A stretch of DNA of 20,695 nt from a virus: the IMG/VR virus record IMGVR_UViG_3300005581_000173, positions 1 through 20,695 of that record. One strand, written 5' to 3'. The notes beneath the pieces were generated by a model. It did not search any database, was not told the DNA's origin, and was given only the letters and a program-made list of their open reading frames with translations. The position numbers and the translations under genes were made by a program. Shown here piece by piece: positions 1 through 18,388 of this stretch; the first letter of the stretch is position 1; the number at the start of each line of letters is the position of its first letter.

Positions 1-102
1 GTACCAAACCTCAGGTGCTAAACCTTCAATCAATTCGTTTTCATCAATACCGACTATTACCTCGGTAACGATGTTGTTGTTCAGAAAAGCGTAGTGTGCC
101 AT
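1..102 (-). CDS. Partial conserved small phage protein, N-terminus only
   Basis: Only the first 34 codons are inside the window; the gene runs off the left edge. The translation begins MAHYAFLNNNIVTEVIVGID and continues through an acidic stretch to Pro-Glu-Val-Trp-Tyr. I recognise this opening as typical of small proteins encoded next to tail-fibre genes in many marine and freshwater phages (MAH-[YF]-A-x-L-[DN]-x-NNIVT-x-VIV). Their function is not established to my knowledge. The ATG overlaps the stop codon of the upstream glycine-rich adhesin by one base (TAATG), so translation is probably coupled to it. No strong Shine-Dalgarno sequence is visible, which fits coupling. A virion or tail-tip role is inferred from position only. 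Confidence 0.75.
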   Translation of the reverse strand, partial: MAHYAFLNNNIVTEVIVGIDENELIEGLAPEVWY

Positions 103-1031
103 TATGACCAACTCACATTTCCTGTGCCAGCAGTAAAGGTTGTTATTTTGTTAGCACCGTCTGTTGTTGTTGAACCCGTTAAACCCGAACCAATATTTAT
201 AGTAAAATTATTTAAGTAACGCAAAATAACCACACCTGAACCGCCTGCGCCAGCAGCCGTGTATGTACCAGCACCGCCGCCACCGCCACCAAGATTCGCT
301 GTACCTGCTGTACCTGCTGGTGTAGTATTTTTACCACCAGCACCACCGCCACCTGTTCCACCAGCACCAGCAACATCTCCGCCATAAGTACCAGCACCGC
401 CACCACCACCGCCACCATAGGTAACTGATGAACCAGTAATTGCAACTGCCCGACCTGCACCACCAGCACCAGCAAGAGCAGCATTTTCGGGACCAGTACC
501 AGCAACGCCAACTGCTGATGCGCCACCGCCACCACCAGCAGCACGATTGCCTAAACCTGGACCGCCCCAATTACCGTTACCGCCCGCAAAACCTTGACCG
601 CTAGTGCCAGCAGCACCCGTATTTGAAGAATTATGTCCCTGTCCGCCACCACCGCTACCACCAGTACCAGCAGTATTTGTTGAAGCGTTACCGTCACCGC
701 CATCACCACCACCAGTTGAAGTGATTGTGTCAAAAACAGAATTAGAACCTGCGGTAGTTGCAGCACCACCAGCACCAACAGTAACCGTGTAATTATTATT
801 GAGTCCAAGTAATAATATTGTTTCTAAACTCCCCGAACCACCAGTTCCCGTAACCGTGCTACGCAAACCGCCCGCACCGCCACCACCGCCAGGTTTATCA
901 CTATCATTAGCGCCGCCACCGCCACCACCAGCGACAACAAGATAATCAACTTGTAGTGGAGTTTCAATTATTGCCTGACCCCACTTAGATACCGCTTGCC
1001 CTACTCGTGTGCGCTGACCGTATCTAGACAT
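102..1031 (-). CDS. Glycine-rich tail adhesin / fibre-tip protein
   Basis: 309-aa protein, probably a receptor-binding adhesin at the tail or fibre tip. After a short basic N-terminus (about residues 1-27), the motif VDYLVVAGGGGGG (28-40) opens a glycine-rich region to about residue 270. Runs of five to seven glycines alternate with short Thr/Ser/Ala/Asn stretches, and the region closes with AGGSGVVILRY (261-271). This layout is familiar from phage glycine-rich domain proteins and resembles the polyglycine-II sandwich of T4-like S16 gp38 adhesins; the structural match is inferred. Residues 272-309 are Thr/Gly-rich and end in Gly-Asn-Val-Ser-Trp-Ser. The Shine-Dalgarno TAAGG overlaps the stop codon of the upstream gene, 7 nt before ATG. 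It sits at the end of the fibre cluster and is coupled by TAATG to the next gene. Glycine codons are mostly GGT/GGC. Confidence 0.8.
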   Translation of the reverse strand: MSRYGQRTRVGQAVSKWGQAIIETPLQVDYLVVAGGGGGGANDSDKPGGGGGAGGLRSTVTGTGGSGSLETILLLGLNNNYTVTVGAGGAATTAGSNSVFDTITSTGGGDGGDGNASTNTAGTGGSGGGGQGHNSSNTGAAGTSGQGFAGGNGNWGGPGLGNRAAGGGGGASAVGVAGTGPENAALAGAGGAGRAVAITGSSVTYGGGGGGGAGTYGGDVAGAGGTGGGGAGGKNTTPAGTAGTANLGGGGGGAGTYTAAGAGGSGVVILRYLNNFTINIGSGLTGSTTTDGANKITTFTAGTGNVSWS

Positions 1032-5094: not shown

Positions 5095-6225
5095 TCATAT
5101 CTCCAATAAGTTGCCTGAATTTTTTAGTACGTCGCGTACGTTTAACACTACATTATAGGTCATCCCAGGTTTTAAATCTATGTAATGTTCCCCAATGGTG
5201 GCTTTGATTGACCGTTGAACTTGTATGTCGCAACGTGGTTCGAACGGAACCCATTCTTTAGACGCTGTTTTGTTTGATGGTTTAACTATTTGTAGTAGTT
5301 GTTTTGCTGATGTGTCCCAGTTGAATGCTTCTGTTTGGGGTGCTGTTTGTTCGGCTTGTTTACGGTATTTGTCACGGTTGTTGTAGATGTCTTTGATGGC
5401 TTCGGCTGTTGCTTCTTGGTCTGGTTCATCCCAGTCGCCTACGTTTTGCCATACACCTTTGGCTGTTGGGACAAGTGTGGTTGGGATTCTGTGGGTGGCT
5501 AAATCTGAGAACTCTCTATGCCCGTGGGCATTAGATACGATGGTTGGTATACCTGCGGAGATTGCTTGTAGGGGCATCAGCCCGAATCCTTCGCCTCTGG
5601 ATATCGATATAAATGCGTCGGCAGATAATACTAAATCTCGTTCTTCTTCAACGGTCATCCATTCACGATGGACTATGACGTTTGGGTATTCTAAATCTTT
5701 TGGTGCGAACAAATGTGGTGGAACTATTTTGATGTGAAGTTCTGCGTCGGGTAACTGTAGTTTGTTGAATACTTCTAGTACGACATCCAGACTTTTGCGA
5801 TACCATTCGGAGCCGCCGCATAACAGTTTAAATTTTTTGTTTGGTTTATGTGGTTGCGGATACCAGATGGTGCGGTCTACTGCGAGTGGGATGACTCGAA
5901 CGTTGTCGTGGTATTTGGAAAACAGTTCCCAGTTATGTAAACTTGGTACTAGAACTGTTTTGAATTCTTTTACATACATTGAGAATTCTGGTGGTAACCA
6001 GTTTGTTTCCCACATTGTTAACAGGTGCGGGGTTTGTTGTTTGTGCCAGCCTTTAATCATGTTTGGTCTTAAAGCAAAAACTGTGTGTTCTGCTAAGTCG
6101 TCAAACGTGACGTGTTTGGATAGCGCTTGGCGTAAGCCTTGAACCATTTTGCCGTACCCAACTTTAGGTATATCGACTCCGACAAGGTTCAGGTATTTGG
6201 TAGAATGCCCGTCTCCACTTGCCAT
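5095..6225 (-). CDS. GT-B glycosyltransferase (GT4-like) with C-terminal extension
   Basis: 376-aa cytoplasmic glycosyltransferase expected to transfer a sugar from a nucleotide-sugar donor. The N-terminal half has the G-x-G-K donor-side loop region (VGYGKMVQGL, 22-31) and an MWETNWLP segment (71-78). The C-terminal Rossmann half has GGSEWYRKSLDVVLEVF (137-153), EWMTVEEERDLVLSADAFI (188-206) and the sugar-nucleotide site SRGEGFGLMPLQAISAGIP (209-227). The GT4 E-x7-E motif is present as E212-x7-Q220, with the second Glu replaced by Gln. Residues about 327-376 go beyond the usual fold and end in LKPGMTYNVVLNVRDVLKNS, resembling tails seen on other phage structural-cluster proteins. The target is unknown: a virion protein, DNA or host surface glycan are all possible. 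Its start lies 37 nt inside the end of the preceding gene, with AAAGG about 14 nt upstream. Confidence 0.85.
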   Translation of the reverse strand: MASGDGHSTKYLNLVGVDIPKVGYGKMVQGLRQALSKHVTFDDLAEHTVFALRPNMIKGWHKQQTPHLLTMWETNWLPPEFSMYVKEFKTVLVPSLHNWELFSKYHDNVRVIPLAVDRTIWYPQPHKPNKKFKLLCGGSEWYRKSLDVVLEVFNKLQLPDAELHIKIVPPHLFAPKDLEYPNVIVHREWMTVEEERDLVLSADAFISISRGEGFGLMPLQAISAGIPTIVSNAHGHREFSDLATHRIPTTLVPTAKGVWQNVGDWDEPDQEATAEAIKDIYNNRDKYRKQAEQTAPQTEAFNWDTSAKQLLQIVKPSNKTASKEWVPFEPRCDIQVQRSIKATIGEHYIDLKPGMTYNVVLNVRDVLKNSGNLLEI

Positions 6226-6464
6226 GGTTCTTGTGCTCGCCTTTCTACTTCTGCTGCACCATCCACACGTTTAGGTTGCAGACCGTTAGCACGTAACCGT
6301 TTGTATGCGGGCATATCTTTCTTCCAACCTTGTTCCGTTGTGTTATGTTCCGCGACCTTAGAGCCACGTGAGGTAGTGCTGTTTGTTGCCATTCTGATTC
6401 CCGCTACTCTGCATCCGAAGCACCCTTCGACATCCAAGTTGGGATGTGTTTCCCTATGTTTCAC
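6189..6464 (-). CDS. Conserved actinophage-type CFGC protein
   Basis: 91-aa protein with the N-terminal signature HPNLDVEGCFGCRVAGI, a middle basic segment, and KDMPAYKRLRANGLQPKRVDG toward the C-terminus. I recognise this pattern ([HY]P-x(2)-DVEGCFGC, then D-x-x-AYKRLR-x(2)-G-[VLI]-QPK-x-[IV]-DG) from small proteins in structural clusters of actinobacterial phages, where the function is unassigned. The single C-x-x-C pair could bind a metal only with other ligands or as a dimer. The start codon is GTG, in a GTGA overlap with the stop of the preceding gene. No ATG in frame offers a better start, since the conserved HPNLDVEG begins only seven codons in. Its 3' end overlaps the glycosyltransferase gene by 37 nt. 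Confidence 0.78.
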   Translation of the reverse strand: MKHRETHPNLDVEGCFGCRVAGIRMATNSTTSRGSKVAEHNTTEQGWKKDMPAYKRLRANGLQPKRVDGAAEVERRAQEPWQVETGILPNT

Positions 6465-6757
6465 GTAATGTAACTCCCGTATCCTGCGGCTGTTAATGCT
6501 GTAACTTCTTCTGCTGTTACTTCGTTGTTGTGTCCACCATAATATGTTTTTGTAACGGTTGTCATATCTGATGGCTGCTTTTGTACATATGAACTGTCGG
6601 TTAGTAGGTACACGTTTTTGCCTCGCGGTGATGCCACGATGTGTGTACCTAGCCTGTTCGCTGCACGTTGTTCTTTTGGTAGATATTGTCCGTTCATGTA
6701 TTCGCCGACGATTACTGGAACAACTAGGTCTTCGGTGGGTGGGCTGAATGTGGACAT
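6461..6757 (-). CDS. Small protein sharing its C-terminal domain with the repeat protein upstream
   Basis: 98-aa protein of unknown function. Residues about 42-98 (ASPRGKNVYLLTDSSYV, TYYGGHNNEVTAEEVTALTA, ending AGYGSYIT) match the C-terminal 60 residues of the 319-aa gene just upstream: Y-x-LT-[ND]-S-[ST]-Y, then YYGGH, EV-x(2)-LTAAGYG-x(2)-IT. The N-terminal 40 residues are different and include VPVIVGEYMNGQYLPKEQRAA. The two genes are adjacent and joined by a TAATG overlap, so the small one looks like a paralogue of the C-terminal domain. A role as a virion accessory or assembly partner is inferred from location alone. The nearest Shine-Dalgarno candidate is GGAG about 13 nt upstream, too far for efficient independent initiation, which favours coupled translation. 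Confidence 0.72.
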   Translation of the reverse strand: MSTFSPPTEDLVVPVIVGEYMNGQYLPKEQRAANRLGTHIVASPRGKNVYLLTDSSYVQKQPSDMTTVTKTYYGGHNNEVTAEEVTALTAAGYGSYIT

Positions 6758-7716
6758 TATGTGATGCTCGCTCCGTATCCTGCTGCTGTTAGTTCTGCTA
6801 CTTCTGTGTCGTCTAAGAAAATGTCATGCCCACCGTAATACACTTTTGATATAAGTTCTGGTCTGCGTGGGTCTGTTATCTGATATGTGCTGTTTGTTAG
6901 TTTATACAGGTTGTATGCCCTGATTCCTTGCGGTGCGAACGCAAACAATCTGTCACTACCTTCAGCGAACTTTGGTGCGAAAGCATATGTTGATGTGTTT
7001 GGTACACGGAAGATATGTGACTTAACCCAGTCGGCTGTTTGTGTTCCTGTGCCTGAACCTGTTGCGGTGCGACGATTGATACGGGCGCCAACACTTTCCG
7101 ATGTTCCCAAGCCTGAACCTGTGGCTGTGCGGATAGATACCAGCAGCCAGTCGGCTGTTTCTGTTCCTGTGCCTGAACCTGTTGCGGTGCGAACACTCAC
7201 AACTAAGTCGATACCTATACCCGACCCAACACCCGAACTTGTTGCGGTACGTACTGGTATCAAAACACCCGTTGTAGTCGCTGTCCCTAAACCTGAACCT
7301 GTCGCTGTTCGTGGTGCAATATGCAACCCAGTCGAGTCCATAGTGCCAACACCAGAACCTGTAGCAGTTTTTATTATTGTCAACAAACCTGTAGCAGTTT
7401 GAGTACCTGTACCTGAACCTGTTCCTTGTCTTTGTCTTAAGACAGATGCACTACTTGATGCTGTACCTAAACCTGAACCTGTAGCCGTGATGGTGAACAC
7501 GGCACGCACACCAAGATAGAAACGACCGCCCGTAAGGTACGGGAAACTGAAGTCTGTTAGTTGACCTAAACGTGTTTGCGATGCGCCATGCACCGCAGAG
7601 TCTGTACCTATTCCCGTTCCTGTTGCTGTGCGTTGTACTACCTGAAAGTATGTTCCCCGATAAAACGGGCGTGTATCAACAAACGGTTCTTTAAAACCTG
7701 TAACTGCTGTAGTCAT
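6757..7716 (-). CDS. Virion protein with eight 20-residue TATGSGxGT repeats
   Basis: 319-aa protein, not recognised by function. After a non-repetitive N-terminus with one degenerate unit (RTATGTGIGT, 29-38), residues 76-235 hold eight tandem units of exactly 20 residues. Each opens with [RK]-TATGSG-x-GT and closes with short hydrophobic segments such as LLVSI or VLIPV. The alternation of Thr/Gly turns and beta-prone stretches suggests an elongated beta fold. Residues about 236-319 form a separate domain (FRVPNTSTYAFAPKFAEG, then YYGGH and LTAAGYGASIT), which recurs in the next gene. No membrane segment is seen. An elongated decoration or fibre protein is my best guess. The ribosome-binding site AGGGG lies in a stem-loop that reaches into the start codon. 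The upstream gene ends 19 nt before. Confidence 0.72.
   Translation of the reverse strand: MTTAVTGFKEPFVDTRPFYRGTYFQVVQRTATGTGIGTDSAVHGASQTRLGQLTDFSFPYLTGGRFYLGVRAVFTITATGSGLGTASSSASVLRQRQGTGSGTGTQTATGLLTIIKTATGSGVGTMDSTGLHIAPRTATGSGLGTATTTGVLIPVRTATSSGVGSGIGIDLVVSVRTATGSGTGTETADWLLVSIRTATGSGLGTSESVGARINRRTATGSGTGTQTADWVKSHIFRVPNTSTYAFAPKFAEGSDRLFAFAPQGIRAYNLYKLTNSTYQITDPRRPELISKVYYGGHDIFLDDTEVAELTAAGYGASIT
7012..7491 (-). repeat. Eight in-frame 60-nt coding repeats
   Basis: Eight tandem 60-nt units encode residues 76-235 of the repeat protein with no register slip. Most copies have diverged. The stretches 7027-7071 and 7147-7191, two units apart, differ at only one of 45 positions, which points to recent duplication or gene conversion of a 120-nt segment. 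Confidence 0.85.
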
Positions 7717-7735: not shown

Positions 7736-8104
7736 TTAATCTAGGGACAGGGTTAGTGTAGTGATTTGAAAAGTGTCACCAGCAGTAACCGCCGCAGACG
7801 AAGACAACGCACCAGTCCACAAAGCATTACCCGCAGTCGAAGCATCCCACGCAGACCAATGCGTAAGTGTTTCCGTTGAAGCAACGTTAGTCCATTCAAG
7901 AGTCGCTGATGTTGCAATAGAACCAGATGCTGCTGAAGCCCAAGCAGCAGATTTGCGTGTTGTTTCGCCAGCAGCGTTAGATGTCGCTGCTTCACCAGGG
8001 TCGCCTGTATGCAATTTGATATACACAGTTGTCGGCATGGTCCAAGCAGTTGTACCTGTTACGTGTTCAAGAATTTTGTTTTCGGCGTAGTTAGAGATAG
8101 ACAT
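7736..8104 (-). CDS. Small beta-rich phage tail/virion protein
   Basis: 122-aa protein beginning MSISNYAENKILEHVTGTTA, then VYIKLHTGDPGEAATSNAAG, with a Ser/Thr/Ala-rich remainder ending DTFQITTLTLSLD. The sequence pattern (S-x-SNYAENK-[IV]-L-[DE]-H, VY-[IV]-x-L-x-T-x-DPGE, a segment like W-x-x-[AS]-SG-x-IA, then ITTLTLSL) belongs to a family of small structural proteins frequent in phages of many hosts and sometimes annotated as tail fibre protein. The exact role is not known to me. It is the first gene after the capsid terminator and would be driven by the extended -10 element at 8125-8133. AAAGG lies 5 nt before ATG. Codons move from A/C-ending at the 5' part to G/T-ending at the 3' part. 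Confidence 0.78.
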   Translation of the reverse strand: MSISNYAENKILEHVTGTTAWTMPTTVYIKLHTGDPGEAATSNAAGETTRKSAAWASAASGSIATSATLEWTNVASTETLTHWSAWDASTAGNALWTGALSSSAAVTAGDTFQITTLTLSLD

Positions 8105-8183: not shown

Positions 8184-9149
8184 CTAGTTAGAACCGATTG
8201 ATGATGCCGATTCGATTCGACGAAGCGAAGCCTCGCGGAAGCGACCGTAACCACCAAGCCAGTACCAACCGACTGGTTGCAAACGCATCAAAACGTCGGT
8301 CACGTTACCGCGAACGATTTTTGGTACAGCGCCGTTACCGTCTTGTGTTGCGTAAGCCTTAGCAAGAGCCTGACGACCCATGATGTGTGTGCAGTATGCA
8401 TCAATCGTACCAGTTGAACTGGTACCGTTTGAAGCGTTCGTGAACACTTTGGCTCGTGGTGTCTCAATGAAACGTACCGACTCAAACAAGCCGATTTCGC
8501 CATTGTAGATACCTTCTGGGTTTACGTAGTTCGCTGGTGTACGCCATGCTGATACGTCTGTGTTCGAACGGAAGTCGTACGACACGTCTGGGTGGATGTA
8601 ACCCATGTAGGAACCGTTGAAGGTTGCTACGTTTGCTCCACGAAGTTGTGCAACAACTCTGCGAACATCGTCAGCGTGAAGAATGTCATCTGTTGAGATT
8701 GATTCTCGGCTGGTTGGGGTTGTTGTGCCACCTGTGGCGTAAACGACGTTGGTTCCTGCGGCAAGAACTTCACGGATAACTTGGTCGATTGAATCGCCTG
8801 CGTTGTATCCGATGATGTTCGCTGCTGCTGAATCAACATCTGTGAATGCTGTTCCACGGAGTTTTGCTGTTGTAACAACTGCGTTGCCGTATTCAGCCAA
8901 GGTAACTGTTACCTGGCTGTCTGAGAGCGCTACTGGTGTTACGTCAGTTACTTCGTTCAGCGTTGATGTCGCTGCCGAAATGTCTGCGAAGATGGTGAAT
9001 GTGACGCCAGTTCCAGGCATTGCCTGTTGTACTGGTTGTACGTCTGCTGCTTGGTCGAACAAGAGTTCTGAACGTAATGCGAAGTACGCAAGACGGTCGA
9101 ATGCTACCTGGTCTACCGAGAGAGACGAGAGTTGGGTTTCGCCTGCCAT
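8184..9149 (-). CDS. Major capsid protein, N4-gp56 family (HK97 fold)
   Basis: 321-aa major capsid protein that forms the icosahedral shell. Family-typical features are VTVTLAEYGNAVVTTAKLRG (80-99), the SYMGYIHPDVSYDFRSN segment (180-196; HPDV-x-YD is characteristic), GLFESVRFIETPR (220-232), and a C-terminal VGWYWLGGYGRFREASLRRI (293-312) followed by ESAS. The length agrees with short members of the N4-gp56 family; no N-terminal prodomain is obvious, which fits a separately encoded scaffold. The gene is 32 nt after the scaffold candidate, with AAGGAA about 9 nt before ATG, and is followed by a strong terminator. Codons in the 5' part end mostly in A/C, whereas the 3' part uses more T-ending codons. 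Family assignment is from recognised motifs; no search was run. Confidence 0.9.
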   Translation of the reverse strand: MAGETQLSSLSVDQVAFDRLAYFALRSELLFDQAADVQPVQQAMPGTGVTFTIFADISAATSTLNEVTDVTPVALSDSQVTVTLAEYGNAVVTTAKLRGTAFTDVDSAAANIIGYNAGDSIDQVIREVLAAGTNVVYATGGTTTPTSRESISTDDILHADDVRRVVAQLRGANVATFNGSYMGYIHPDVSYDFRSNTDVSAWRTPANYVNPEGIYNGEIGLFESVRFIETPRAKVFTNASNGTSSTGTIDAYCTHIMGRQALAKAYATQDGNGAVPKIVRGNVTDVLMRLQPVGWYWLGGYGRFREASLRRIESASSIGSN

Positions 9150-9796: not shown

Positions 9797-10825
9797 CTAT
9801 TCGATTGTTTGTAGGTTGACTTTTCCGCCTGCTTCGAATTCTCCTCGGCGGCGTCGTTTGCGTGTGCCTACTCGTTGGGCTGCTTGTGCGCTTGTGCCAA
9901 GGGTGCCTGCGATGGCTTCTTCTTGGGTTAAGGCTTCTTCGCCCATTAACGGTCTGTATAGGCTTTCTTGTTGTTTGAAGGTGGTGAATCCTGCTTGTGC
10001 TTCGGCTTCGGTGACGCCTTGGCGGACTAGTTCTTCAGCGGACGTGGCTGTTAGGGCTATGCCTGCTTGTTTGCGGGCTTGTGCGCCTACCTCTGCGGCT
10101 CTGGCGGCACGCAGGATGTTGTCTTGGGCTTTGGCTGGGTCTACGAAGAATGCTGCGATTGAGCCGTCGTCTAGGTTGTACAAAGTTTTTAGTTCGTTGA
10201 TGACTGTTGGGTCGGCGTTGCGTACAGCCTGATAGCCCTGTGTCACTCGTGCCAAGATTTCATCTGGGGAAATGTCGTTGATGAGGAAGTTTTGTAGCGA
10301 TGCGGGGTCGTCGTAGAATCCTGCTGGCATTCCTGAGTCACGTAAGTTTCTGCGGTATTGCGATTCTAAGAGAAGTGTTTGGCTAACGGAGTAGACAGGT
10401 TTGCCTGCTGCTCGGCGTGCTTCGTTTGCTGCAAATCGTCGTTTAAACGCTGGTGATTCACGTAGTTGGATACCGATTTCGTCGACTGTTGATGTGCCTG
10501 TAATGAGGCGGTTGGATAGGGCTGTGCGGATTTCGTTAACTAAATCTGGGTCATCTAATCCGTAGAATGCAAGAGTTTTTCTGAGGATGGTTGTGGCTGT
10601 TTCATTGTCGCCTGGTGGGATAAATGAGACTGCACGACTAGTTGTTCTGACTGGTTCTTCGTCTTCTGTTTCTGTTTGTCTAACAGGTTGTCTACCTAGC
10701 CCATAAGCGGTTTCTTTTGGGGCGTAAGCAGCAGCGATTTCGGCAGTAAAATCACGGACAGGTGCTGTAACAGGGCGACCACGTGCTTCAGATAGGGCTT
10801 GTAGGTCTTCTGGTGTCATTGACAT
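9797..10825 (-). CDS. Helical protein of the portal-capsid block, unknown function
   Basis: 342-aa mainly helical protein. Residues 1-75 are Pro/Thr/Glu-rich and probably disordered. The middle has AFYGLDDPDLVNEIRTALSN, ESPAFKRRFAANEARRAAGK and a DSGMPAGFYDDP segment. The C-terminal part has LTATSAEELVRQGVTEAEAQ, SLYRPLMGEEALTQEEAIAG, and a strongly basic RKRRRRGEFEAGG before the end. I have seen this C-terminal pattern in uncharacterised proteins of actinobacterial phage structural clusters; no function is known to me. The basic patch could contact packaged DNA. It is the last gene of the unit that starts at the portal. It begins in a TAATG overlap with the 620-aa gene, with GGAAAG about 8 nt upstream, and is followed by the capsid promoter. 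Confidence 0.72.
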   Translation of the reverse strand: MSMTPEDLQALSEARGRPVTAPVRDFTAEIAAAYAPKETAYGLGRQPVRQTETEDEEPVRTTSRAVSFIPPGDNETATTILRKTLAFYGLDDPDLVNEIRTALSNRLITGTSTVDEIGIQLRESPAFKRRFAANEARRAAGKPVYSVSQTLLLESQYRRNLRDSGMPAGFYDDPASLQNFLINDISPDEILARVTQGYQAVRNADPTVINELKTLYNLDDGSIAAFFVDPAKAQDNILRAARAAEVGAQARKQAGIALTATSAEELVRQGVTEAEAQAGFTTFKQQESLYRPLMGEEALTQEEAIAGTLGTSAQAAQRVGTRKRRRRGEFEAGGKVNLQTIE

Positions 10826-12687
10826 TAGATAATCTTTCCGAACGCTTGAGCAATATTAGCCGACAAAGAACGTGCCTCATCCTTAGCATTATTAGTTCTT
10901 TCCCAACCGTATTGTGGGTCAGAACGTAATAGTTTTTCCCATTCGCTGTTAGTCATCAAACGCTTCTTGCCTTCTTCACCGAAACTTACCGCTTGTTCAA
11001 AAGCGCCTGTGGACATATCAATAGCGTTTTCGTCAAGTTCTAAAAGTTGCGCTGCGCTTGTTTTGTAATTCGCGGCAATGCTTTTCATTGTCATGCCCTG
11101 GTCTAACAAATCTTTCAAATGCCCATAACGTTGCCCAGCAAATACTCTTTGTTGACGTTCGTAATCGGCTGGTAAAATTTGTCCTGTCAGAACTTGTTCA
11201 ATGTCGTCGTCTGATGGATTACCAAAGAATGATTTAGCAATGTTTTGTGTTCTGATGTAATCAGCAGATTCTTTTACACGTTTCAACGCTGTTGGGTTTA
11301 TGTAATTATTTGCGTCATCTTTTTGAAAGACTTGTTCGTAAACTTTTTGTTTGAGGATGTCACCTTCATATCCAAAGTTGATGGAATCTGACACAAATTT
11401 GGTAAAGTCGCTGCCTTCAAAACCTAATGTGCCTACAAGGGATTGAATGGTTTTTAGTTGTTTTGAGGTTGATATTTCTTTATAAAATTCTGTGCCTTCT
11501 AATTGGGCTTCAAAACGTGCTCTGCCTTCTGGTGTTTTGTATGATTCTTCGGCAATGGCTGTGCTAAGGACTTTAAACAGTTGAGGATATTTAGTGCGGT
11601 CTAAGTCGAGTAGCCATGCTTTTGCTGGGAATTGTTCTCGAATTATTGTTTCCCATGCGTTGCTAACCGCTGCTGCTTCTGGGGCTTTGCCTTCGGCTAC
11701 GGCTGTTTTGTATTCTTTGCGTAATATTTCACGGTTTGCTGGGGTGTTTTCTAAACCACGGGCGATGAGTTGTGCGCTTACAAATGCTTTTCGTTTGGCT
11801 ACGTCAACTACTGGGGCGGCGGCAACGCCCGAGCCTACTCCAGCACCTGCGCCTGCTCCAGCACCTGCACCTGCTCCAGCACCTGCGCCTGCTCCTGCTC
11901 CAGCACCTGCACCTGCTCCAGCACCTGCTCCTGCACCAGCGCCCGTGGCTACTGTCGGTTTCATGGCAGCAAATCGTGCGTTTTCTGCACGGTCTTCCAT
12001 TGGAGCAACTGTCGAAGTTCTACCTTGTTGACTTAAAATCGCTGTAGGAGTACCAATAACTTTTGGTGTTACCGTTGGCGCTGGCTTATCTGCAATAAAT
12101 TCTACCGTTGATTTGTTTTCTCTTACAGTTTGCGCTTCACCAGATTTAGGCAAAACAAGTGTTGCCAATTCTCCAGCCTGCACTTTTTTCAAAACTTGTT
12201 GTGCGTCACGCAATTCTTTTTCTTCAATTTTGCCACTTTCAAAATCAGCAGATGCTTTATCTAATTGAAACTTAGCAACACGCAACGCCGTTTTTTGTTG
12301 ACGTTCTTGATTTTCTGCTTGCTTCTTTAATCCTTTTAACTGGGGGAGAAGTTCATCTCGAACTCTTGTCAAAGAATAAACATCGTTTTTGTATTTAAGA
12401 TTGGTTACGCCTTCATCTAAAGCGTTTTGAGCAGCCTTGAGGTCTTTTGTTATTTGTGCAAGGTCAAGTTTTTCTGTAACAATTTCTTCGGGAACAAATT
12501 CATCTTTTGCCAACCATGCTGGGGGATTCTTAAAGAATTCGATAACATCTGTTATTGCACCCCAATCTTGTGGCGAGGTTTTTTCAGAAATTTCACCATT
12601 CAACCAACGGTTATATAGATATTGTTTTGTGCTATCAGGAACAATAAGGTTTTTAATCCATTCGGGCATCGGTTTTTGTTCAGCCAT
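10825..12687 (-). CDS. Coiled-coil protein with (Gly-Ala)17 linker
   Basis: 620-aa protein with three parts. Residues 1-60 hold an N-terminal domain with two Trp-containing segments (PEWIKNL, QDWGAITDVI). Residues about 75-165 are a Lys/Glu/Gln-rich coiled coil (LKGLKKQAENQERQQKTALR and neighbours). Residues 249-282 are a strict Gly-Ala repeat of 17 dipeptides, then GVGSGV and Ala/Val. The remaining 330 residues are helical and end in a segment with YGWERTNNAKDEARSLSANI then AQAFGKII, which I associate with uncharacterised actinophage virion-block proteins. No enzyme motif or membrane helix is evident. It is probably an elongated, flexible internal or connector protein, but this is inferred. 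AAAGGA lies 8 nt before ATG, and both ends are joined to neighbours by TAATG overlaps. Confidence 0.72.
   Translation of the reverse strand: MAEQKPMPEWIKNLIVPDSTKQYLYNRWLNGEISEKTSPQDWGAITDVIEFFKNPPAWLAKDEFVPEEIVTEKLDLAQITKDLKAAQNALDEGVTNLKYKNDVYSLTRVRDELLPQLKGLKKQAENQERQQKTALRVAKFQLDKASADFESGKIEEKELRDAQQVLKKVQAGELATLVLPKSGEAQTVRENKSTVEFIADKPAPTVTPKVIGTPTAILSQQGRTSTVAPMEDRAENARFAAMKPTVATGAGAGAGAGAGAGAGAGAGAGAGAGAGAGAGAGAGVGSGVAAAPVVDVAKRKAFVSAQLIARGLENTPANREILRKEYKTAVAEGKAPEAAAVSNAWETIIREQFPAKAWLLDLDRTKYPQLFKVLSTAIAEESYKTPEGRARFEAQLEGTEFYKEISTSKQLKTIQSLVGTLGFEGSDFTKFVSDSINFGYEGDILKQKVYEQVFQKDDANNYINPTALKRVKESADYIRTQNIAKSFFGNPSDDDIEQVLTGQILPADYERQQRVFAGQRYGHLKDLLDQGMTMKSIAANYKTSAAQLLELDENAIDMSTGAFEQAVSFGEEGKKRLMTNSEWEKLLRSDPQYGWERTNNAKDEARSLSANIAQAFGKII
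11842..11943 (-). repeat. Gly-Ala coding repeat, 17 dipeptides
   Basis: 102 nt encoding seventeen Gly-Ala dipeptides, built from hexamers such as GGTGCT, GGAGCA, GGTGCA and GGCGCA arranged in imperfect 12- to 42-nt blocks. The third-base variation shows that it is not a simple perfect microsatellite, though its length is likely to vary by slippage. The opposite strand is open in several frames only because of this repeat. Confidence 0.9.
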
Positions 12688-13502
12688 TATGCCTGTCCTT
12701 TAATTTTTTTATCAAGAATGTCAAACAAACCTAAAGCACCAACCGCTTGGGCTTCTGGACCAAACTGCTGCTGAACCTGTCCCTCGGCGGCAACAGCAAG
12801 ACTTGGTGCACGAACACCACCCATTGCTTCGGTAATTTCCATACGCTCATAAGTTTTCACAAACTTTTCAATCTCGTTAGGTGACAGGCTACGCCCTAAT
12901 ATTTCTTGAGTTGTTTTTTGTAGCACGGAACGGATGTCTTGTTTTGCTGTGGTGCGAATAACTCTGCGAGGCGCTACATACGGTTTTACTTCTGCAAGAA
13001 ATTTGTCTAAGGCTGCATCAATCGTTAAACCTGAATCATTTGCGTAACGCATAAATTCTTTTGTTATAGAAATGTCTTCAGTACCAAAACCTGTTCCGCC
13101 GAGAGGTCTACCGTTTTTGCCGTATAACCCTCGTGATGCTAAAGCGTTTTGAAATAAATCCCTATCGGCTTTGCCCATGCGTGCAAGTTCGCTTTCGGCT
13201 TCCTCGTCTTGGTATAGTCCGCGTTCGAGAACACCCGATTTATTTAAAAGTTTTTGCCCTTGAAACAAAATATCAAAACCTTGACGTTGACGTGTGGCGG
13301 CATCGCCGCTATCTGAAACAGTTCCGCCAAGAATATCTTGTGGGTTGAGTTCTCTAAGTTGCGGCGCTGTTAAAAATACTTTACGACCTGGCAATTTAAC
13401 ATCTGGCGCTAACCCACCAGATACCTTAGGCGCAATAATAGGAGCCTGAGCAGGCGGTGGGGTGACTGGTGCGTTAGGGTCTGTTGATTCGTTGATTGAC
13501 AT
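12687..13502 (-). CDS. 271-aa protein of the portal-capsid block, unknown function
   Basis: 271-aa protein. The first 35 residues are Pro/Ala-rich and probably disordered (VTPPPAQAPIIAPKVSGGLA). Then come VFLTAPQLRELNPQDILGG, a segment with SRGLYGKNGRPLGGTGFGTE followed by DISITKEFMRYANDSGLTID, and a helical part with SVLQKTTQEILGRSLSPNEI followed by EKFVKTYERMEI. The LGR-x-LS-x-[NE]-E-[IL]-x-x-F pattern occurs in uncharacterised proteins of phage structural clusters. No catalytic motif is visible. The C-terminus is helical and Gln/Ala-rich. TAATG overlaps at both ends tie it to the 1628-aa giant upstream and the 620-aa protein downstream; GAGGT lies about 6 nt before ATG. A role in the virion interior or at the portal is inferred from this context. 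Confidence 0.7.
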   Translation of the reverse strand: MSINESTDPNAPVTPPPAQAPIIAPKVSGGLAPDVKLPGRKVFLTAPQLRELNPQDILGGTVSDSGDAATRQRQGFDILFQGQKLLNKSGVLERGLYQDEEAESELARMGKADRDLFQNALASRGLYGKNGRPLGGTGFGTEDISITKEFMRYANDSGLTIDAALDKFLAEVKPYVAPRRVIRTTAKQDIRSVLQKTTQEILGRSLSPNEIEKFVKTYERMEITEAMGGVRAPSLAVAAEGQVQQQFGPEAQAVGALGLFDILDKKIKGQA

Positions 13503-16500
13503 TAATCTACCTCTGCCGCAAGTTTATCTTCAAAAATTCTTGCGAACTCTGGGGTTTGTTGTACGAGCGTTGCAGCAATACTAGCCAACCAATCCTTTAG
13601 AGGCTGTGTTTTTGGTGATTGGAAACTTGAGAACCCTGCTGCTGCTGCGTTCGCTAATGCTTGGTCACGGGCATCCAAATATTCTTTGACTGCGTTCGCT
13701 ACGTCGTTGTCGGCTAAACGGTTATCGGTTACGGCTGTACGCAAATCGTTGATGAAGTTAGGGAATTCGCCTGGGTTGAAATCGGCTTTAATTGGGAACC
13801 CTGGGTATTCTTTGTTGAGGAATCCACGCCATTGGCTTAGCCAGTCTCGTTGTTCTTGGTTGAGGGTTGCACCAAGTTGGTTGCGTTTCTCACGGTAGAT
13901 AGATGCGCCGATGCGGTATTGGGCTGCGGCAACCATTTCTTCTGCTGTCAAACGTTTGCGTTCACCTTTTTGGATTTGACGGTTAAAGGCTTCAAAACTA
14001 AACGAATCCCCACCTGGGGCAAAGAACCCTGCAATGCCTTTGTACTGTGTCATCAGGTCGTTGTTGTCTTTAGCCCAATCGGAAAACACTTTGGTTGGTT
14101 CGATACCGCTGGTTGTTGGTTCAGTTTTATGACCCATGTAGATAAATGAGTCTTCACCAAACTGTTTGATAAATTCTGATACGGCGGTGTCTGGGTTTTT
14201 CGTTTTAAGTTTGTAGAACTCTTGCGAGAGTGATGATGCGATGATGTCACCGCCGTCGGTTTCTAAACGAAAATCAATTTGTGGTGAGGCTGGTCCTGTG
14301 AATTGGAATAAGGCACGCATTCCTGCGAGGACTTGTGCTTTGCGGCGTGCATCAGCATACAGTTTTGCCATGTCGTTAGCATCTTTGGTGTTGTAACTTC
14401 CGCTTTGAATTTTGTGGCGGACTACTTCTGCGTAGGTGTTGGCGTAAATTGTGCCAAGTTTTCCCGTGTCACCTTTAATTGCTTCGAAGCCTCGAACAGC
14501 CCATTGCGGTGCGAGCGACGATACACCTTTTTCGCCGTATGGCAAAATCATTTTGCGAATAAATTCTAGTTGAGGGACATCTGGAAGTATGGCTGATGCT
14601 GCAATTTGTATGACTGGACCGCCGCCTGGCAAGTTCAATACTTGGAATGCGCCTTGTATTGGGAACTGAAACATTGCCCCTGCCCATCCGCCAATAGGAA
14701 AATTGAATACGTTTTTGCCGTTTATCGGGTCTTCTGCAAACCATCCCGATAAAGCGTTGTCTGAGTTGTCTGAGTCGTAGTCTGCTGCGTCGAATGCGAG
14801 TTGGGTTTTGCGGATTCGTGATGGGTCTTCTACAAGGTATGAAGTGTATTTGCTGAGTGTTTCTCTGAAAGCGGTGGCGAAAGGAACGACAACTCTGAGG
14901 GTGTCTTCAATGTTCGATTTTTCCACGGCGTTGTAGAGAACTTCTCTTAATTCTTGAAGTGCGACGATGGATGAAAATTCTTCTAGTTGTTCTAATGTGC
15001 CGTCACCTGTTGCAACTTTGCCGAATATACGATTGTATATTTCTTTGTTGCCAACATATTTTTCTGGTGTTAAACGCTTATTGTTGTTTGCAATATTGAT
15101 TTCGTCTACATATTTGACGATGTTGTTTTGTAGTTTTTGTTGTTCTGTCGCCGATAAAAGGTAGGCGTTATCCGCAACATTTTTGTAAAACGATTGACGG
15201 TATAGAGGTGAGCGTTCTAGTTTTTGTGTTGCTGTGCCAACCAAATCATTAAAGAAGAATTTGACAGCCGAGTTCATAAATCCAGCAATTTTGCCTAAGT
15301 CTTGTTTTTCGTCAACTTGCATACGTTCCGCACGTTTAACCATTTGTGCTAATTCGTTGCGTGCACCTTTGAAATCGATTAGTTCACGTAGTCGTTCGCT
15401 GCCTAACAACGACAAGTCTTTTTGTGGGTCGCCAAACGCTACGCCTTTTGCTATTGGTTGAACATCTGCTTTTGTTTGTGTAACTAATTTGCCTGGGTTA
15501 AAAGGGTCTGGGACTTGTACTGTTCTAACATTGGTGATGACGCCTTTTTGGTTAACGCTTAGTTGGACAACTGTGCCTGGTTGAATGTCGGCTGGGTTTA
15601 AAAGTTTTGAGGGTGCAACTGTTTGTCCTTTAATTGGTCGATTGATGCTGTCTTCAACAAAAAGGTTTGCTGAATCAATATTGGTTTTTCTTGCGGCAAC
15701 TTGGAATTCTCCAGGTGCGCCAAAAGGTACTGGCTCTAATAATGGAACACGATTGTATGATGAAATGAATCGCAAATCTTCATCGATTTGACCTGTTGCT
15801 ACATCTTTTTTTAGTACGTTAGAAATTTTTGATGTTGCTAATTTGTCTACCCATGCGGCGATAAGTGTGTTGTCGTCCGTGTTTCTTAGTTTGATAAACG
15901 TTGAGCCTGAACCTTTAGGGTCGGCAACACGCACGCCGTTTTTAAAATAGTTAAGTATTTTTTTGCGGGCTTCACCGCCTTCGGTTGTTGTCTGCAACCA
16001 GTCAACTATTCGAGCGGTTCTTTGATTTTGTGGAAGTGACCAAAGTTGGGCAACTTTTCTTAGGATTGGGTCTGCGTTAATTTGACCAAGATTGTCTACG
16101 TAGCCTGTTGTGTGCGCTGTCGCGTCGGTGGCACGGTTAACTAAACCAAAGTTTTGTGAACGCCTTAAATTTTGGTTTGCGTTTGTTGGGTCTACTAAAT
16201 GGTTGTAGACGCTAAGATTTATTGCTTCTGAAACTTCTTGTGCAGCAGCGCTAAAATTTTTGCCGAAAGCATCATCGAAGATGTTTTCAAAGGTCAAGAC
16301 CTTTGCGTCTTTACCTAATAGTGTGCCGACAAAACGTTGGTTCATCGCTATTTGTATAAATTGTAATGGGTGCGAAAAAAAACTTTGGTATCCGTTGGCG
16401 GCTATTCTGATATGTGAATCGATTAAGTTGCGGACAACATAACCGCCAGTTGCCAACACGAATGGTTTCCAAACTTCTTGTTGAAGTTGTTCGGCAGCAG

Positions 16501-18388
16501 CAATGATGTGGCGCTGATTGCCATCTCGGTTAATTGCCGCTTTCATAATTGGGTTGGATGTAAGACGTTTTAGTTTTCTGAAATCTGGCAAAACATATGT
16601 TCTTTGAACCAATTCAACTAGCGCTGTTGGACTTATCATTTGCAAGGCGTCTTGTTCTGGTGGCGTAAAATTGTTTAATTGATTTGGGTCTATCATCCCG
16701 CTTGCTTTCAACATTTGGATTGCGCCACCATCGTCAATTTGACCTGCGGCATCAACGGCATATGTTGCTATTCTTGCTTTTTCTGCGTCTTTTAATTCTT
16801 TAACTGCTGCACCAATACGTTTATCGCCACCACCTAAATCGTTAACCAAGTCAATGAAATCATCAAATAGTTTGTCGTTTAATAGATTGCGGTCACCTTC
16901 TGGTGCGCTTAAAGCAACGGCGGCTTTACCCATAAACTCTTCGTATTTTGCTGCTGCTTTTTGTGGGGCGCGTACACCTTCTAGATATCTGCTGTAAGTT
17001 TTTACGGCGTTTGAACGGTCAATTGATGTTCCGTTCACAATGGCTTGTTCCGTAGGAATTGACGACCACCATCGACCATTGCGTATAGTTCGGTAAAGAG
17101 GGACTCGTTCTCTCGCTAATTCTCTAATTGCGGATGTTGCGCCGACACCTTTTACGTCGCCAATAAGTTTTGGAAAAAAACTTTGTTGTGTTCTTGGGTC
17201 GAGCGCTGCTGATGCTTGTCCAATTATCGCTTTAATTTTTATTGACTCGTCGGCTTCGGCTAACCGCATTGCCGCTTCTGGGTCAATGCGATATTTGAAA
17301 TCTGCCATAATTTTTGCGGCTGCTTTGCCTCGTTCAAGTTGTGCAGACGCTGGAGTCATTGTTCCGTTTTGTGCTTGAATCACAAGATTGTCTGATGCAG
17401 TTTTGGCGTAACCAGAAATTCGTTCTGTTAGTCTTCGGGCTTTGTCGTTGCTTTCAAACCATTGAAAATATTTTGACCCGACAAACGCTTGAGCGTTTGG
17501 ACTGTTTAATCCCGCTATGCCACGTTGAGCGATTGACTCTGCTGCTTGGGCTTCTGCTATTGAAAGTTTTGGAATTATTTGTGATTCAACTAAACCTGTT
17601 TCTGAAAGAACTTCTCCAACTTTGCGGCTGATGGCTCGTGTGCCAATTAATCCTTTTACTGTTTCTCCACCAGCAAGGTCAACAACTTTTGCTGCTTTGA
17701 TTCCTTGACCAACGACAATAGTTGGGTCAGCAAAAATATTTACGGAAGCGTCGAAGAAGCCTGATAGCAGGGAGTATTCTTTTGTTCCTGGCGTAAACAC
17801 AAGGTTTGCTGCGCCACGCCCAACAGTCCATGCATGGTTGTTGATTGTCCCACGAAACTCTTTTGCTCTTTGTGCTTGTGTTACAGCGGCTTCCCCACCA
17901 AAAAAGAATCCTTCGCCTGAGTCTTGCCCTGAGAGCATTGTTCCAAGTTGTGTTGAAGCAAATACCCCTGCTGCGCCTTCTGGGTCATTTGGTGAAAATA
18001 TTTGTGATGCAACGTTTTGTGTTAGGTCTGGAGTAAGTTGTAGTGCGGCGAAACCCCAACGTGTTGCGGCTTTTACTTTGCTGTAAATATTTCTATCAAA
18101 CCAGCCTTTAGGGTCAGATTTGTTTGGGTCGTTTTGTGTAGCAAGTTTTGTTGCTTCCATTTTTGCTACAGCGTCAACAGCCTGTTTTGATAGCCCTGGT
18201 TGTTTTGCCATGTCTAACAAGACACGTGGCGACACCCATCCGTTCTGTTTATAAAGTTCAGATACTTTTGCTGCTTGTTGTGGGGTTACTGTTGCTTGTA
18301 TCTTTTTTTGTGCATCAATGTTTGCTTGTGCATCTTTGTCGTTGTTGTCTTCGTCAACAGGGTCAAATGCGCTAAATACACCAGCCAT
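13502..18388 (-). CDS. Giant 1628-aa probable internal virion (ejection) protein
   Basis: 1628-aa protein, almost a quarter of the window. The start is soluble and acidic, with a helical segment VTPQQAAKVSELYKQNGWVS. Amphipathic or hydrophobic stretches occur at about 111-132, about 635-665 (ATGGYVVRNLIDSHIRIAAN) and about 1230-1268 (FPIGGWAGAMFQFPIQGAFQ onward). Around 1166 is VVVPFATAFRETLSKYTSYL, a type of segment I associate with large internal virion proteins of podovirus-like phages. I see no lysozyme or transglycosylase active-site motif and no RNA-polymerase motif, so enzymatic activity is not claimed. The frame is open throughout without interruption. The gene follows the portal and a 134-aa protein in TAATG coupling, with AAGGA 5 nt before ATG. 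A pore-forming or ejected role is inferred; a tail-length protein is the main alternative. Confidence 0.72.
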   Translation of the reverse strand: MAGVFSAFDPVDEDNNDKDAQANIDAQKKIQATVTPQQAAKVSELYKQNGWVSPRVLLDMAKQPGLSKQAVDAVAKMEATKLATQNDPNKSDPKGWFDRNIYSKVKAATRWGFAALQLTPDLTQNVASQIFSPNDPEGAAGVFASTQLGTMLSGQDSGEGFFFGGEAAVTQAQRAKEFRGTINNHAWTVGRGAANLVFTPGTKEYSLLSGFFDASVNIFADPTIVVGQGIKAAKVVDLAGGETVKGLIGTRAISRKVGEVLSETGLVESQIIPKLSIAEAQAAESIAQRGIAGLNSPNAQAFVGSKYFQWFESNDKARRLTERISGYAKTASDNLVIQAQNGTMTPASAQLERGKAAAKIMADFKYRIDPEAAMRLAEADESIKIKAIIGQASAALDPRTQQSFFPKLIGDVKGVGATSAIRELARERVPLYRTIRNGRWWSSIPTEQAIVNGTSIDRSNAVKTYSRYLEGVRAPQKAAAKYEEFMGKAAVALSAPEGDRNLLNDKLFDDFIDLVNDLGGGDKRIGAAVKELKDAEKARIATYAVDAAGQIDDGGAIQMLKASGMIDPNQLNNFTPPEQDALQMISPTALVELVQRTYVLPDFRKLKRLTSNPIMKAAINRDGNQRHIIAAAEQLQQEVWKPFVLATGGYVVRNLIDSHIRIAANGYQSFFSHPLQFIQIAMNQRFVGTLLGKDAKVLTFENIFDDAFGKNFSAAAQEVSEAINLSVYNHLVDPTNANQNLRRSQNFGLVNRATDATAHTTGYVDNLGQINADPILRKVAQLWSLPQNQRTARIVDWLQTTTEGGEARKKILNYFKNGVRVADPKGSGSTFIKLRNTDDNTLIAAWVDKLATSKISNVLKKDVATGQIDEDLRFISSYNRVPLLEPVPFGAPGEFQVAARKTNIDSANLFVEDSINRPIKGQTVAPSKLLNPADIQPGTVVQLSVNQKGVITNVRTVQVPDPFNPGKLVTQTKADVQPIAKGVAFGDPQKDLSLLGSERLRELIDFKGARNELAQMVKRAERMQVDEKQDLGKIAGFMNSAVKFFFNDLVGTATQKLERSPLYRQSFYKNVADNAYLLSATEQQKLQNNIVKYVDEINIANNNKRLTPEKYVGNKEIYNRIFGKVATGDGTLEQLEEFSSIVALQELREVLYNAVEKSNIEDTLRVVVPFATAFRETLSKYTSYLVEDPSRIRKTQLAFDAADYDSDNSDNALSGWFAEDPINGKNVFNFPIGGWAGAMFQFPIQGAFQVLNLPGGGPVIQIAASAILPDVPQLEFIRKMILPYGEKGVSSLAPQWAVRGFEAIKGDTGKLGTIYANTYAEVVRHKIQSGSYNTKDANDMAKLYADARRKAQVLAGMRALFQFTGPASPQIDFRLETDGGDIIASSLSQEFYKLKTKNPDTAVSEFIKQFGEDSFIYMGHKTEPTTSGIEPTKVFSDWAKDNNDLMTQYKGIAGFFAPGGDSFSFEAFNRQIQKGERKRLTAEEMVAAAQYRIGASIYREKRNQLGATLNQEQRDWLSQWRGFLNKEYPGFPIKADFNPGEFPNFINDLRTAVTDNRLADNDVANAVKEYLDARDQALANAAAAGFSSFQSPKTQPLKDWLASIAATLVQQTPEFARIFEDKLAAEVD

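What the first reader, a model, noticed from the sequence alone, without database searches (positions are those of the whole stretch)
7012..7491. Exact 8 x 60-nt repeat array coding for a TATGSGxGT protein
Eight 20-residue units without any register slip, one ninth degenerate copy nearer the N-terminus, and a near-identical 45-nt pair exactly 120 nt apart. The repeat has no family that I recognise. The strict period suggests a regular elongated beta structure whose length evolves by unit duplication, as expected for a host-facing fibre or decoration.
Basis: partly seen in the sequence, partly recalled or inferred. Interest (0 to 1): 0.58.

Follow-up and report, generated by a model that had tools for sequence, protein, structure and literature searches.

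The report
Repeat rope of a phage side-fibre
The repeat gene probably encodes the rope that strings together the beads of a phage side-fibre, and very different phages carry ropes of different sequence but the same 20-residue repeat length next to the same bead gene.

Summary
The array is real: eight 60-nt units without slip, a ninth upstream copy, and a 44/45-nt pair 120 nt apart. It lies in a 319-aa protein of phrog_23524, function unknown. The gene follows a homologue of gp80, the bead protein of a fibre of podophage GP4; from recall, that fibre is five gp80 dimers on an elongated rope protein. I read the window protein as such a rope: exchangeable N-terminus, 20-residue shaft units, C-terminal anchor domain.

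The best support is comparative. In IMG/VR loci chosen by gp80 alone, the next gene has its best self-similarity at 20, 40 or 60 residues in 56 of 68 cases, against 26 of 422 genes further away; after clustering, 36 of 43. Named phages agree. The window rope shares no detectable sequence with the other ropes: the spacing is conserved, the sequence is not. In the window family gp80 is in the locus in 242 of 242 testable cases, and unit number varies from about 7 to 15.

AlphaFold leaves the array unfolded as a monomer. Contact between rope and gp80 was not shown here.

The parts
6757..7716 (-). 319-aa repeat protein, proposed rope (shaft strand) of a gp80-type fibre; phrog_23524
   Evidence: ORF; PHROG match 1-319, E 1.2e-111
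7630..7716 (-). N-terminal segment, residues 1-29; this end is exchanged in relatives (proposed tip)
7570..7629 (-). ninth, degenerate unit, residues 30-49
7489..7569 (-). 27-residue insert between unit 1 and the array (RLGQLTDFSFPYLTGGRFYLG); unit-to-unit step 47 = 20 + 27, kept in relatives and found at other units in a few
7009..7488 (-). array of eight 20-residue units, residues 77-236
6760..7035 (-). C-terminal domain, residues 228-319 (overlaps the last unit), phrog_8987-like, proposed anchor to the virion
   Evidence: AF2 mean pLDDT 80.7; structural neighbour in Streptomyces phage HaugeAnator
7736..8104 (-). 122-aa gp80 homologue (PF23140, Podophage GP4 fiber I protein), proposed bead of the fibre
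6461..6757 (-). 98-aa stand-alone paralogue of the C-terminal domain; its start codon overlaps the rope's stop codon by one base
8184..9149 (-). major capsid protein, context gene

Best explanation
The protein is the rope of a gp80-type side fibre. Each 20-residue unit offers a docking site for a gp80 subunit, so a run of units strings gp80 dimers into a bead chain. The C-terminal domain holds the chain to the virion and the exchangeable N-terminus is the far tip. Shown: the repeats, the gp80 homologue next door, constant co-occurrence, the same 20-residue period in sequence-unrelated proteins beside gp80, changing unit number and N-terminus. Inferred: physical contact with gp80, one unit per gp80 subunit, direction of the fibre, place of attachment.
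For: gp80 homologue directly upstream. gp80 present in 242 of 242 testable window-family rope loci, 231 directly upstream, 11 displaced; 192 of the 242 came from rope queries. In loci chosen only by a gp80 profile, best lag 20/40/60 in 56 of 68 +1 genes, 9 of 74 -1 genes, 26 of 422 others; 36 of 43 clusters at 50% identity. In 22 named gp80 loci, adjacent genes with z>8: 13 of 14 at lag 20; non-adjacent: 2 of 15. 0 of 106 ORFs at lag 20 with z>6 in three stretches taken as gp80-free. Window rope in a cluster of its own. Array unfolded as monomer, as expected for a rope. Exchangeable N-terminus and 7-15 units. 8jou holds 10 chains of gp80; fibril role and dimer described in PMC13243795 (passages); in Sf14, gp30 threads through whiskers completed by gp31 dimers (passages of PMC11821841), and a chain of that study's entry 9c39 is a gp80 homologue.
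Against: No contact or complex was shown. The GP4 rope itself was not found among PDB sequences, so its repeat was not checked. 12 of 68 +1 genes lack the period, and among named phages Mvi-JY20 and X1 show none, while Pinnie has best lag 10 and Lietuvens and phiM5 fall below threshold. Of 7 scorable bacterial-genome loci, 2 had lag 20. Units of different ropes share no hydropathy pattern beyond chance, and no general odd-even alternation matching dimers was seen (27 of 62 ropes). Virion presence unknown.
Confidence: 0.75

Rival explanations
1. A self-folding fibre: the 20-residue units form a beta shaft or beta-solenoid on their own (probably as a homotrimer), and gp80 is only a neighbouring structural gene.
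For: Strict period and alternating hydrophobic residues in the second half of many units; the gene lies among virion genes.
Against: AF2 with 20 relatives gives pLDDT about 22-34 over the array and few strands. A self-folding shaft would not explain why the period 20 tracks gp80 in sequence-unrelated proteins. AF2 of a monomer cannot exclude a trimer.
Confidence: 0.12
2. A disordered, Thr/Ser/Gly-rich linker or glycosylated spacer of the C-terminal domain whose repeats expand neutrally.
For: Low predicted order; a glycosyltransferase gene lies close by (5095-6225).
Against: Neutral expansion does not fix one period across unrelated sequences. Within the family the units are conserved in order, with position-specific residues kept, and the step 20 dominates.
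Confidence: 0.08
3. Head decoration: gp80 and the repeat protein coat the capsid rather than form a fibre near the tail.
For: The genes follow the capsid gene directly; PHROGs calls the gp80 family 'head protein'.
Against: The solved homologue is a GP4 fibre protein (PF23140 name; 8jou), and in many phages the pair lies among minor tail genes.
Confidence: 0.05

Closest known systems
Fibre I of Ralstonia podophage GP4: gp80 dimers on a rope protein (Zheng 2023, J Mol Biol 435:168258; abstract recalled, paper not read)
   Same: A gp80 homologue (8jou chain a, E 3.6e-13) beside an elongated protein proposed as rope.
   Different: The GP4 rope sequence was not in hand, so homology and its repeat step are untested; the C-terminal anchor here is phrog_8987-like.
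BcepIL02 gp55/gp56 and other Lessievirus pairs (phages related to GP4 in gp80)
   Same: gp80 homologue followed directly by a virion-associated protein with about 20-residue units.
   Different: No sequence similarity of the repeats to the window rope; steps of 20-23 rather than strictly 20; other C-terminus.
Minor tail proteins beside gp80 in mycobacteriophages (Megabear, Bernardo, Archie, BrownCNA and others)
   Same: Lag-20 array beside gp80.
   Different: Other sequence; in most of them the repeat gene lies 5' of gp80, and several carry a Gly_rich_2 domain.
Sf14 / Felix O1-type whiskers (gp30, gp31; PMC11821841, passages)
   Same: A gp80 homologue (9c39_K) and a protein that threads through the whiskers.
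   Different: The neighbouring 166-aa protein in the relative ECOH1 shows no 20-residue array by eye; that it is gp30, and the gp80 homologue gp31, is inferred from gene order.
LSH1 gp34-36 module (PMC13243795, section 16 read)
   Same: A gp80-like dimer (gp35) beside a protein with an N-terminal lyase-like domain and a long stretch that AlphaFold could not model.
   Different: Whether that stretch has a 20-residue period was not tested.
phrog_23524
   Same: Covers the window protein end to end.
   Different: The family has no assigned function.

Membership tests
phrog_23524 | Full-length profile match | tested here: met
   1-319 of the protein to 1-342 of 342, E 1.2e-111
gp80-rope fibre (GP4 fibre I type) | gp80 homologue encoded next to the rope | tested here: met
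   PF23140 E 3.3e-32; 8jou_a E 3.6e-13; 231 of 242 directly upstream, 242 of 242 in the locus
gp80-rope fibre (GP4 fibre I type) | Sequence homology of the rope to the GP4 rope | tested here: inconclusive
   No GP4 rope sequence found in the PDB copy; window rope not similar to ropes of GP4 relatives
gp80-rope fibre (GP4 fibre I type) | 20-residue period as in other genes beside gp80 | tested here: met
gp80-rope fibre (GP4 fibre I type) | Rope physically threads gp80 dimers in the virion | not testable with these tools
   No multimer prediction or virion data on hand
phrog_8987 (C-terminal domain only) | Profile match and same fold as stand-alone members | tested here: met
   E 0.00018 for residues 285-318 and 4.4e-05 for the 98-aa paralogue; HaugeAnator 128-aa protein prob 0.99 but E 0.043
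Self-folding beta shaft or beta-solenoid | Predicted regular strands in the array | tested here: not met
   pLDDT about 22-34 and few strands in the array, monomer only

The most novel reading that the evidence does not exclude
Tailed phages of podo-, sipho- and myovirus type share one fibre principle: a 20-residue rope register set by gp80. Rope sequence is free, rope period is fixed, and the number of units is a ruler that sets how many gp80 beads, and so what fibre length, the virion carries, with a swappable adhesin at the N-terminal tip.
Probability: 0.5. Interest if true: 0.77.

Novelty: new variant of a known kind. Interest (0 to 1): 0.62.

Why it matters
As far as I know, a gp80-rope fibre has been resolved in GP4 only, with a related whisker in Sf14. 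The period rule gives a sequence signature for such fibres in many unannotated phages, turns 'hypothetical', 'minor tail' or 'serine-rich adhesin' genes into candidate fibre shafts, and suggests an explanation for the stretch beside the gp80-like protein of LSH1 that its authors could not model. If units count beads, fibre length becomes readable from sequence and testable by deleting units.

Tried and rejected
Pfam and PDB sequence search found nothing for the repeat protein. tblastn of it in 50,697 phage records found nothing, nor did megablast of the window or tblastn of the 98-aa paralogue. A hydropathy pattern shared across rope clusters was sought and not found: mean r 0.443 against 0.421 for the null. 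Odd-even alternation was sought and not found generally, although the window's own units show it (similarity at unit distance 1, 2, 3, 4: 1.94, 2.38, 1.86, 2.21). The GP4 rope was sought in PDB sequences and not found (one search gave one hit, a beta-lactamase at E 0.2). Fold search of the C-terminal domain in the PDB gave no match under E 0.001; the viral library gave three, none with a function. Fold search of the full-length model was not run, its confidence being too low. Paper searches for the repeat string, '20-residue repeats' with phage and tail fiber and '20 amino acid repeats' with bacteriophage and fiber returned no paper; only this open-access library was searched, so absence from print is not shown.

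Rows dropped before counts: one search used 22 of the 23 gp80-bearing named loci then in hand (DC1 left out as near-duplicate of BcepIL02) and only uncut coding genes of about 100 aa or more, gp80 excluded; ECOH1 and BcepMigl, fetched later, are in no count. One search used 76 of 80 loci (4 had no gp80 ORF in the simple ORF list). The 68 are the same-strand +1 ORFs. One search was given 12 of the 13 genome loci; 5 had no gp80 ORF and 7 were scored. The unit counts include one false match in the C-terminal domain of most ropes, which I subtract. One search gathered ropes by their C-terminal domain, so its conservation is partly by selection.

Full report
OBSERVATION. The window is a virus record of 20,695 bases. 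The repeat gene is 6757-7716 on the minus strand, 319 aa. Eight units of exactly 20 codons occupy residues 77-236, nt 7009-7488; a ninth lies at residues 30-49, nt 7570-7629; the 45-nt pair is 44/45 identical at 120 nt distance. The lag-20 score of 283 compares with a highest value of 64 in 2000 shuffles. The finding is confirmed, except that units are exact in length, not in sequence (22-49 of 60 nt shared between any two).

WHAT IT BELONGS TO. Pfam has no family for the protein; PHROGs has phrog_23524, full length, no function. Upstream lie a gp80 homologue (7736-8104; PF23140 'Podophage GP4 fiber I protein gp80', E 3.3e-32; PHROGs 'head protein') and the major capsid protein (8184-9149), whose nearest named relatives are Streptomyces phages at about 43% identity. 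The gene order portal, very large protein, capsid, small genes, tail genes resembles Streptomyces phage Olicious of the Beephvirinae. The gp80 homologue matches PDB 8jou chain a, present in 10 chains. I recall from the abstract of Zheng 2023 that GP4 fibre I is five gp80 dimers linked by an elongated rope protein at the tail vertex; I did not read that paper. An independent text describes 8JOU_g as forming a fibril connecting an adhesin to a tail collar, and as a dimer (PMC13243795).

ANATOMY. In relatives the protein has three parts. The N-terminus is exchanged: short in the window, about 200 residues longer in L154 and L159, a short tag in L263 and L265. The shaft is a run of 20-residue units: step 20 makes up 801 of the 1147 steps in the 25 commonest classes, of which 106 (steps 90-98) are the false C-terminal match; steps 46-48 occur where a 27-residue insert (RLGxLTDFSFPYxTGGRFYLG) sits between units, and 18-24 are small shifts. 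The C-terminal 92 residues fold in prediction (mean pLDDT 80.7), resemble a 128-aa protein of Streptomyces phage HaugeAnator (prob 0.99, E 0.043) and match phrog_8987, to which stand-alone proteins of Olicious and ct2KA10 also belong. A 98-aa stand-alone paralogue follows in the window (6461-6757). So the rope looks like an array fused to a copy of a small virion protein. AF2 of the whole protein gives pLDDT about 22-34 in the array and 77-86 only for residues 271-319.

COPY NUMBER. Of 118 distinct complete relatives, 71 are 321-325 codons long (stop to stop), the others 252 to 621. By motif scan, after subtracting one false match in the C-terminal domain, unit number runs from about 7 to 15, mostly 9. 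It is thus stable in near relatives and changes in the wider family.

CO-OCCURRENCE. gp80 lies in the locus in 242 of 242 window-family rope loci with room upstream: 231 directly upstream, 11 separated by 0.8-3.5 kb. These are loci, not distinct genomes: some contigs were fetched more than once. In the 7 displaced loci whose upstream frames I printed, other genes lie between, some adhesin-like or fibre-like by eye. Some loci had been fetched by gp80 itself; 192 of the 242 came from rope queries, 8 of them displaced. In Olicious and ct2KA10, by eye, the translated stretches show neither a gp80-like gene nor an array, only the stand-alone phrog_8987 protein; no profile search of every ORF was run there.

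THE 20-RESIDUE RULE. Reading the neighbours of gp80 in other phages showed repeat proteins again. I scored every sizeable gene in 22 named gp80 loci by ungapped self-alignment at lags 8-60 against shuffles (250 genes). Adjacent genes (43): 14 with z>8, of which 13 have best lag 20 and one lag 10. Non-adjacent genes (207): 15 with z>8, of which 2 have lag 20, both in Imvubu (one is the rope homologue two places from gp80), and one lag 21 in ctvy9321, three genes from gp80. Weak or missing: Mvi-JY20 and X1 none; Lietuvens and phiM5 with lag 20 best but z only 2.3 and 0.2; Itty13 lag 41; Gmala1 lag 60; Pinnie lag 10. I then took 80 IMG/VR loci chosen only by a gp80 profile. In 76 usable loci with 570 ORFs, adjacent ORFs with z>6 number 51, with lags 20 (37), 40 (7), 60 (4), 10 (2) and 36 (1); at ranks 2-3, 18 ORFs, none listed at 20, 40 or 60; further out, 17 ORFs, 3 at lag 20. 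With no z threshold the +1 gene has its best lag at 20, 40 or 60 in 56 of 68 loci, the -1 gene in 9 of 74, others in 26 of 422. Clustering the +1 genes at 50% identity leaves 43 clusters, 36 with such a lag; Fisher p about 6e-30 against the distant genes. Three stretches taken as gp80-free (Olicious, ct2KA10, the first 50 kb of Slicko01; not tested for gp80 by profile) gave 0 of 106 ORFs with lag 20 at z>6. Among 7 scorable bacterial-genome loci, several with weak gp80 hits, 2 had lag 20.

INDEPENDENCE. The 69 ropes compared fall into 8 single-linkage blastp clusters; the window's stands alone. The largest cluster has 52 members and may be joined partly by low-complexity units. The mycobacteriophage ropes mostly sit 5' of gp80 and the others 3', so the association does not rest on one gene order. 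Units from different clusters share no hydropathy pattern beyond chance. What is shared is the length 20 and the neighbour gp80. The simplest reason is geometric: the step of the gp80 chain. That is inference.

MECHANISM PROPOSED. gp80 subunits dock on successive rope units and form a bead chain; the C-terminal domain anchors it, the N-terminus is the tip. One unit per gp80 subunit is a guess from 10 gp80 chains in 8jou and about 11 units in BcepIL02 gp56. BcepMigl, among the listed phages the one whose gp80 is nearest to GP4's (67%), has a shorter rope of 246 aa, so the number is not fixed even there. In Sf14, gp30 threads through whiskers completed by gp31 dimers (PMC11821841), and PDB 9c39_K is a gp80 homologue; that 9c39_K is gp31 is my inference from gene order in the relative ECOH1.

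PAPERS. Passages only: PMC10925440, PMC11784390, PMC12796354, PMC11821841. PMC13243795: passages and section 16. Zheng 2023: not read, recalled. Literature searches.

VERDICT. A real array, most likely the rope of a gp80-type side fibre. The element is a new variant of a known kind; the period rule across phages was not found in the library searched.

Noticed in passing
window 11833-11943: A GA-dipeptide run (GAGAGAG...) in the 620-aa protein 10825-12687, seen by Tandem Repeats Finder as periods 18, 24 and 42; its C-terminal half matches phrog_34303.
   Followed up: no
window 102-1031: A glycine-rich protein, Pfam Gly_rich_2, probably a second adhesin; the same domain occurs in the mycobacteriophage proteins Megabear gp25 and Archie gp24 that also carry 20-residue arrays.
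   Followed up: partly
window 5095-6225: A glycosyltransferase gene inside the virion gene block.
   Followed up: no
L079, L154, L221 ropes: The 27-residue insert (RLGxLTDFSFPYxTGGRFYLG) occurs a second time at another unit in these ropes, so it behaves as a movable module within the shaft.
   Followed up: no
L180, L188, L265, L182, L238, L153 upstream of the rope: Genes resembling adhesins or tail-collar fibres, by eye, sit between gp80 and the rope in displaced loci.
   Followed up: partly
C-termini of ropes in L213, L281, L307, L349, L288: Many of the other ropes end in a W-rich stretch with a step of about 10 residues, perhaps their own anchor.
   Followed up: no
window 13502-18388: A 1628-aa protein with no PHROG match, in the place of Olicious gp9; perhaps an internal or ejection protein.
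   Followed up: no
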